This document shows positions 39,635-40,567 of a stretch of DNA of 64,000 bases, one piece after another. A program made the position numbers and the translations under genes. The notes beneath the pieces are model-generated. The model searched no databases. It was not told the origin of the DNA and saw only the letters and a list, made by a program, of their open reading frames with translations. This DNA is from SAR202 cluster bacterium bin22 (lineage in GTDB: Bacteria; Chloroflexota; Dehalococcoidia; Lucifugimonadales; UBA3495): contig MPMM01000001.1 in assembly GCA_002238505.1 (NCBI GenBank), positions 744,001-808,000 of the forward strand. The letters run 5' to 3'. How positions within the stretch are numbered: position 1 is the first letter of the stretch; each line of letters starts with the position of its first letter.

Positions 39635-39754
39635 CTAGGACCATTGGAAACCGCCCTTGATCTTATGGGGAAGGGAAGTGCCCGCGATTTTCCAATCCGA
39701 CCTTCTCTTCCCCACGTAATTCCAAGTGACCCTTGAACCGAGGAACACATCAAG

Positions 39755-40459
39755 TTGGATTCTGATTCTCGCACCGGACTGTTGGCCTGGCTGCCGTTGG
39801 CGGCAGTCACCGCCGTTTTGTTCCTGGTGGTTGCCCTTTTCTGGCTGGTACAACCCCAATCCGACGTTTCCCGAAATGCCGTTTCGGCTGAAGCCGTTCC
39901 TTCCGAACGAGTCCAGCCCCGGCCCACCGCTACCTCGGCCCCAACCCCAACTCCTTCCGTGGTTACCCCTGCGGGTACCGTTGAAGCTCCGGGCTTTCGC
40001 GGCATAGTTCAATGGATCAACAGTGAACCCCTAGTCCTGGAGGAACAGCAGGGCAAAGTAGTCCTGATAGACTTCTGGACCTACTCTTGAATTAACTGCA
40101 AGCGAACCCTGCCGTATGTAAGGGACTGGTACGACAAATACACCGACCGCGGTTTGGTCGTGGTCGGCGTTCACTCTCCCGAGTTTGAGTTCGAGAAAAT
40201 CGAGTCCAATGTCCGGGAGGCTCTCCCCCCGCTGAATGTGGTCTGGCCCGTGGCCATGGACAACGAATTCAGGACTTGGCGGGCCTACAACAACCGCTAC
40301 TGGCCTCGCAAGTACCTCATCGACCAGGACGGAATGATTCGTTTCGACCGCATCGGCGAGGGCGCCTACCTCGAGATGGAACTTCACATCCGGAACCTTC
40401 TGGTGGAGGCTGGCGCTGACGTGTCTGATATCGCTGTGGGCGGGGTGGAAGCCCGCTGA
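39755..40459 (+). CDS. DipZ-like membrane-anchored thioredoxin, probable selenoprotein (in-frame TGA)
   Basis: The frame is open from a TTG (GAGGAA 9 bases upstream) to a TGA at 40088-40090, and then in the same frame to a stop at 40459. Around the TGA the protein reads VVLIDFWTYS-U-INCKRTLPYV; homologues have WTYSCINC, so the TGA replaces exactly the first cysteine of the redox CxxC. The rest is intact (GLVVVGVHSPEFEFEKIESN, YWPRKYLIDQDGMIRFDRIG), 234 residues in all with Sec at position 112. A hydrophobic segment (about residues 9-31) anchors it, followed by a Pro/Thr-rich linker, so the thioredoxin domain should face outside. A stem-loop after the TGA fits a bacterial SECIS. A nonsense mutation or sequencing error is the alternative. 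Confidence 0.8.
40091..40130 (+). promoter_or_regulatory. Candidate bacterial SECIS element
   Basis: Directly after the in-frame TGA, CCCT (40107-40110) pairs with AGGG (40121-40124) around the loop GCCGTATGTA. The loop starts with G and lies 20 bases from the TGA, within the spacing known for bacterial SECIS hairpins. The stem is short, so folding support is modest. Confidence 0.5.
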
Positions 40460-40567
40460 TTTCGGGAAACCCTGCCCTTGACTTGGTATTGAGCCGCGTT
40501 CCACTTCTAGGGAAGGCGGTTATCTTGTCGTCATCCATTACTAACGCTAACCCCAGGAGGTCAACCA

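What the first reader, a model, noticed from the sequence alone, without database searches (positions are those of the whole stretch)
39755..40459. DipZ-like thioredoxin with in-frame TGA at the first CxxC cysteine: probable selenoprotein
A single TGA interrupts an otherwise continuous 234-codon frame at the residue where homologues have the attacking cysteine (WTYS-C-INC). Both sides keep full family conservation over more than 100 residues. CCCT/AGGG with a G-first 10-base loop begins 17 bases after the TGA. A random nonsense mutation is unlikely to hit exactly that codon. A membrane-anchored UxxC thioredoxin would be an extracytoplasmic reductase or oxidase of high reactivity. UxxC thioredoxin-like selenoproteins are known from marine metagenomes, but I do not know of this architecture being described in this lineage.
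Basis: partly seen in the sequence, partly recalled or inferred. Interest (0 to 1): 0.88.

Follow-up and report, generated by a model that had tools for sequence, protein, structure and literature searches.

The report
Selenium form of DipZ-like thioredoxin
A marine SAR202-type Chloroflexota bacterium uses the "stop" codon TGA to place selenocysteine at the reactive position of a membrane-anchored thioredoxin; its relatives switched between sulfur and selenium at this same site in at least three separate branches, so this is a real and apparently unlisted selenoprotein family.

Summary
The 234-codon frame 39755-40459 is broken once, by TGA 40088-40090, at the first cysteine of the CxxC motif (WTYS-U-INC). 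The genome has tRNA-Sec, selA, selB and a selD that itself carries an in-frame TGA. All six genomes that hold this gene in the same gene order have TGA at this codon; the protein after it is under strong purifying selection (dN/dS 0.06-0.11). Codons +1 to +13 after the TGA are unusually invariant (10/12 against 23/92 elsewhere, P=1.4e-4), as expected of an embedded SECIS. Cysteine stands there in other relatives. Two further Sec clades of the same domain exist in the order. The fold matches M. tuberculosis DipZ (44% identity), but the CcdA and C-terminal domains are missing and a single membrane anchor replaces them. The redox partner is unknown: DsbD/CcdA, VKOR and DsbB models found nothing. 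It is a new member of a known kind, UxxC thioredoxin-like selenoproteins. I found no published DipZ-like selenoprotein.

The parts
39740..39745 (+). GAGGAA, likely ribosome-binding site, 9 bases before the TTG start
   Evidence: sequence; orthologues start at the aligned place with TTG, GTG or ATG
39755..40459 (+). gene for a membrane-anchored DipZ-like thioredoxin selenoprotein, 234 aa with Sec at residue 112, TTG start, terminal TGA
   Evidence: translation, orthologues, dN/dS
39782..39847 (+). N-terminal transmembrane helix (residues 10-31), signal anchor
   Evidence: helix 10-31 in the AlphaFold model; hydrophobic stretch in all group A members; orientation inferred
39983..40414 (+). thioredoxin/TlpA-DipZ domain (residues 77-220)
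   Evidence: Pfam AhpC-TSA/Redoxin/Thioredoxin_8; phmmer 2HYX 6.7e-46; Foldseek 5CYY/2HYX 44% identity
40088..40090 (+). in-frame TGA read as selenocysteine at the first position of CxxC (UINC)
   Evidence: TGA in all 6 syntenic orthologues
40091..40129 (+). stretch with strong synonymous constraint (codons +1 to +13), the candidate bacterial SECIS
   Evidence: 10 of 12 against 23 of 92 invariant codons, Fisher P=1.4e-4; rare codons TAT, GTA, AGG kept in all six
   Evidence: weak energy, not better than shuffles

Best explanation
The gene encodes a selenoprotein. UGA 40088-40090 is decoded as selenocysteine by the genome's own SelA/SelB/SelC/SelD set, guided by an RNA element in the codons just after the UGA. 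The product has one N-terminal membrane anchor, a flexible Pro/Thr-rich linker and a DipZ/TlpA-type thioredoxin domain with a U-I-N-C active site, most likely facing outward. Sec is the attacking residue: it forms a mixed selenenyl-sulfide with a substrate and the nearby Cys resolves it, making the protein a fast extracytoplasmic thiol-disulfide oxidoreductase. Shown: Sec machinery, conserved TGA/Cys exchange, purifying selection, synonymous constraint, fold. Inferred: actual Sec insertion, outward topology, reducing direction, substrate and electron donor.
For: tRNA-Sec 67.5 bits, full length, UCA anticodon; selA 541.7 bits; selB 348 bits, over the cut-off; selD 385.6 bits with TGA in CAGU and a typical SECIS. 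TGA at the same codon in 5/5 genomes of the genus and in a second genus, with the same neighbours. Cys there in other relatives. dN/dS downstream of the TGA 0.06-0.11. Synonymous constraint right after the TGA, ranked 3rd of 121 windows, whereas the Cys paralogues of family f2 show none (0.72 against 0.73). Two more Sec clades in the same domain family; selB over the cut-off in all 24 genomes checked. DipZ fold.
Against: The candidate SECIS is weak: best hairpin -5.2 kcal/mol or weaker in most members, short of the -7.5 of the published model (PMC13188914), -9.9 in one, and no better than shuffles. Some Cys homologues give equally good hairpins by chance. The Cys paralogues of family f1 also show some raised codon identity there (0.67 against 0.51). 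No known electron donor or oxidant (DsbD_TM, VKOR, DsbB) was found. No protein or RNA data.
Confidence: 0.88

Rival explanations
1. Nonsense mutation: the gene is a pseudogene or makes a truncated 111-aa peptide.
For: Standard code gives two separate ORFs (39755-40090 and 40154-40459).
Against: Same codon TGA in six syntenic orthologues with dS up to about 1.3 in the region after the TGA; dN/dS after the TGA 0.06-0.11, like before it; no other stop or frameshift.
Confidence: 0.02
2. UGA is read by a mechanism without selenium (near-cognate readthrough inserting Trp, Cys or Arg, or a general reassignment of TGA).
For: The predicted SECIS is weak.
Against: TGA also ends this gene and others in the window, so there is no general reassignment. 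The single TGA sits exactly at the redox Cys, and the complete Sec machinery is present. Independent Sec clades, including selD and the NHL protein, have the same Cys/TGA exchange.
Confidence: 0.04
3. It is a selenoprotein but works as an oxidase/isomerase or a peroxide-reducing enzyme rather than a disulfide reductase.
For: UxxC with nearby conserved Trp/Tyr also occurs in Prx-like oxidoreductases (Pfam AhpC-TSA and Redoxin match); no CcdA/DsbD donor was found.
Against: No DsbB or VKOR re-oxidant was found either; closest structures are DipZ, ResA and YkuV thiol-disulfide oxidoreductases.
Confidence: 0.3

Closest known systems
DipZ C-terminal thioredoxin domain, M. tuberculosis (PDB 2HYX, 5CYY)
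   Same: 44% identical over the domain, same fold, CINC active site aligned with UINC
   Different: DipZ has Cys, an N-terminal CcdA-like membrane domain and a C-terminal Thioredoxin_10 domain; here Sec, one TM helix and no C-terminal domain
ResA / TlpA / CcmG-type membrane-anchored thiol-disulfide oxidoreductases
   Same: One N-terminal anchor plus a TlpA-like domain
   Different: About 25% identical; they use CxxC and receive electrons from CcdA (general knowledge), which was not detected here
UxxC thioredoxin-like selenoproteins listed in PMC13188914 and PMC2398784 (Trx-like 1, Prx-like thiol:disulfide oxidoreductase, Redoxin family UxxC, SaoT, HUIPC)
   Same: Sec at the first position of UxxC in a Trx fold
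   Different: No DipZ or Chloroflexota entry is named there; no selenoprotein-specific NCBIfam model passes its cut-off (WAxxUGC_long 17 bits against 300)
NHLRC2 / SOQ1 Trx-NHL proteins (6GC1, 7DJJ)
   Same: Related Trx domain; the same genome has a Sec form of this architecture
   Different: Fused to an NHL propeller; a separate deep branch in the tree

Membership tests
bacterial selenoprotein | Sec decoding set (selA, selB, selC, selD) in the genome | tested here: met
bacterial selenoprotein | in-frame TGA aligned with Cys of homologues and conserved in relatives | tested here: met
bacterial selenoprotein | SECIS hairpin fitting the bSECIS model (loop 3-9 nt, G in the first two, 16-37 nt from the UGA, at least 4 bp upper stem, MFE at most -7.5) | tested here: inconclusive
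   geometry can be met (loop 23 nt after the UGA, first base G) but the energy falls short except in one orthologue; not better than shuffles; synonymous constraint supports some element
bacterial selenoprotein | Sec shown in the protein | not testable with these tools
   needs 75Se labelling or mass spectrometry
DipZ | DipZ-type thioredoxin domain | tested here: met
   phmmer 6.7e-46 to 2HYX, Foldseek rank 1
DipZ | CcdA/DsbD-like multi-helix membrane domain | tested here: not met
   one TM helix only; no DsbD_TM in the genome
DipZ | C-terminal Thioredoxin_10 domain (PF17991) | tested here: not met
   absent in the window protein, present in Cys paralogues and in Sec clade C

The most novel reading that the evidence does not exclude
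SAR202-type Chloroflexota run a selenium-based extracytoplasmic thiol redox system around UxxC DipZ-like proteins that lacks DsbD/CcdA, DsbB and VKOR. Cys and Sec were exchanged in at least three branches of this domain, so the electron donor or oxidant outside the membrane would be of an undescribed kind.
Probability: 0.2. Interest if true: 0.75.

Novelty: new member of a known kind. Interest (0 to 1): 0.57.

Why it matters
It adds a DipZ-like family to the known selenoproteins and shows repeated Cys/Sec switching at one catalytic residue inside one bacterial order, with close Cys relatives, and in one genus a Cys paralogue next door, as natural controls. Gene callers are likely to miss such genes: without Sec they see a short ORF and antisense ORFs. 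Uncultured SAR202-type bacteria thus appear to use selenium for redox chemistry that is probably extracytoplasmic.

Tried and rejected
bSECIS-style hairpin scoring did not separate Sec from Cys genes reliably, and folding the stretch gave z=+0.67, so I do not rest the case on the hairpin. RF01852 rings for many tRNAs in every control genome; only the 67.5-bit hit with a full-length alignment and UCA anticodon is taken as tRNA-Sec. The second TGA reported for G021 is simply that gene's stop, overrun by the match. The TGA reported in G041 was not confirmed as an active-site TGA (one search reads only a CxxC copy there), so it was not counted. Paper searches for DipZ, SAR202, NHLRC2 or Chloroflexota together with selenoprotein terms found no prior report.

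Full report
Observation. The sequence shows TGA at 40088-40090 in a frame that runs from TTG 39755 to the stop 40457-40459. Read as Sec, the protein is 234 aa with U112 in WTYS-U-INC. TGA is still used as an ordinary stop, also by this gene, so there is no general reassignment.

Sec machinery. The window lies in a 4.39 Mb, 58-contig genome (97% complete). It holds a tRNA-Sec with a full-length alignment and UCA anticodon at C16:857700-857792 (67.5 bits), selA at C16:826493-827845 (541.7 bits), selB at C12:84165-86021 (348.3 bits) and selD at C57:40142-41065 (385.6 bits). Two other RF01852 hits sit just over the cut-off (48.7 and 47.4 bits); I take them for ordinary tRNAs, since the model rings in all 14 control genomes. 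selD has its own in-frame TGA at the catalytic site (HCAGUAAK), followed by a stable GGACCUGGUACAGGUCC hairpin (-10 kcal/mol). selB is over the cut-off in all 24 relatives tested.

Conservation of the TGA. In the family (50 genomes) the orthologues in all five genomes of the genus and in one genome of a second genus (G021) have TGA at this codon and no other internal stop. G021's second TGA is its natural stop. The gene order MFS transporter - LLM-type flavin monooxygenase - this gene - S9 peptidase is the same in all six (product names by my reading of the sequences). Another genus (G019) has TGC there and a different neighbourhood. Many other DipZ-like homologues from several bacterial phyla and archaeal MAGs have Cys (81 CC against 4 UC motifs in 80 loci). 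After the TGA, dN/dS among the six is 0.06-0.11 at dS up to about 1.3, which refutes a pseudogene.

The RNA element. Of 12 informative codons +1 to +13, 10 are identical in all six genomes, against 23 of 92 elsewhere (Fisher P=1.4e-4; permutation over any window P=0.006). They include codons rare in the rest of the gene: TAT (2 of 43 Tyr), GTA (3 of 66 Val) and AGG (3 of 56 Arg). The Sec copies in a second family show the same (0.97 against 0.79), while their neighbouring Cys paralogues do not (0.72 against 0.73). A caution: Cys paralogues of family f1 also show some rise (0.67 against 0.51), and Sec clade C, with three close sequences, is uninformative (0.89 against 0.85). The published model asks for at most -7.5 kcal/mol (PMC13188914), reached by only one orthologue. 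That review and PMC12013277 note that some bacterial SECIS elements do not fit the model.

Repeated Cys/Sec switching. A search of 250 genomes of the order and reading of the loci gave two more Sec clades. Clade B is genus g18 of family f2: five species, about 230 aa, with a lipobox-like N-terminus; where the contig could be read (four of five), it lies immediately downstream of a full-length Cys paralogue. Clade C is genus g81 of family f34: three species, 412 aa including Thioredoxin_10. The maximum-likelihood tree of the domain needs at least four label changes, forced by well-supported branches, once the NHL-type proteins are included. The three DipZ-like Sec clades are therefore separate on the tree. 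Whether each is a gain, or some changes are losses, is not fully resolved, because support inside the A+C region is moderate.

What the protein is. Pfam finds AhpC-TSA/Redoxin/Thioredoxin_8 only. The closest solved structure by sequence and by fold is the M. tuberculosis DipZ C-terminal part (2HYX, 5CYY; 44% identity). The AlphaFold model (mean pLDDT 73.6; domain blocks mostly 80-93, lower around the active site) has a helix 10-31 followed by a disordered linker and the thioredoxin fold. It lacks DipZ's CcdA part and Thioredoxin_10 domain, so it is DipZ-like but not a DipZ. It works most plausibly as an anchored extracytoplasmic thiol-disulfide oxidoreductase with Sec112 as attacking and Cys115 as resolving residue. 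That step is inferred from the fold, the motif and general knowledge of UxxC enzymes. The direction of electron flow is open: no DsbD_TM/CcdA was found in 18 genomes, no VKOR in the window's genome and no DsbB in eight genomes.

Lineage. A study of the sponge Aplysina aerophoba reported that SelA and SelB co-occur in most symbiont bins but are missing from most related references, and its bins include SAR202 (PMC5649159).

Novelty. UxxC thioredoxin-like selenoproteins are well known from marine metagenomes (PMC2398784) and the 2026 inventory (PMC13188914). Neither names DipZ, NHL or Chloroflexota, no selenoprotein-specific NCBIfam model passes its cut-off, and the paper searches found nothing. 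These inventories do contain broad entries (Redoxin UxxC, cd02966 UxxC) that could include a relative. I file it as a new member of a known kind.

Noticed in passing
L053 1819-3414 (G000:C16, about 535300-536900, outside the window); L054-L062: A second selenoprotein: about 495 aa, thioredoxin plus NHL propeller like human NHLRC2 and plant SOQ1, with WTYC-U-INC (TGA). Matches with a TGA are listed in 43 of 50 family genomes; ten were read in full. It has a strong SECIS UUUCCGC-AGUU-GCGGAAA. No report of a Sec NHLRC2-like protein was found.
   Followed up: partly
L162 1481-3569; L163-L165: In genus g18 a full-length Cys DipZ-like gene is followed directly, with overlapping open frames, by the short Sec form: a natural Cys/Sec pair.
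   Followed up: partly
L167, L168, L169: Sec clade C: full-length lipoprotein-like DipZ-like protein with Thioredoxin_10 and UINC; sister species G210 and G213 have Cys.
   Followed up: partly
L170 (G213:C91): The Cys copy in G213 is broken by a TAG inside the thioredoxin domain: decay or assembly error.
   Followed up: no
G000 and relatives: No DsbD_TM/CcdA (18 genomes), VKOR (own genome) or DsbB (8 genomes) although several extracytoplasmic-looking DipZ-like proteins are present.
   Followed up: partly
window 40031-40504 (-) and 39635-40012 (-): Antisense ORFs over the Sec gene, longer than the pieces left by the TGA, might be called instead of it by standard gene finders.
   Followed up: no
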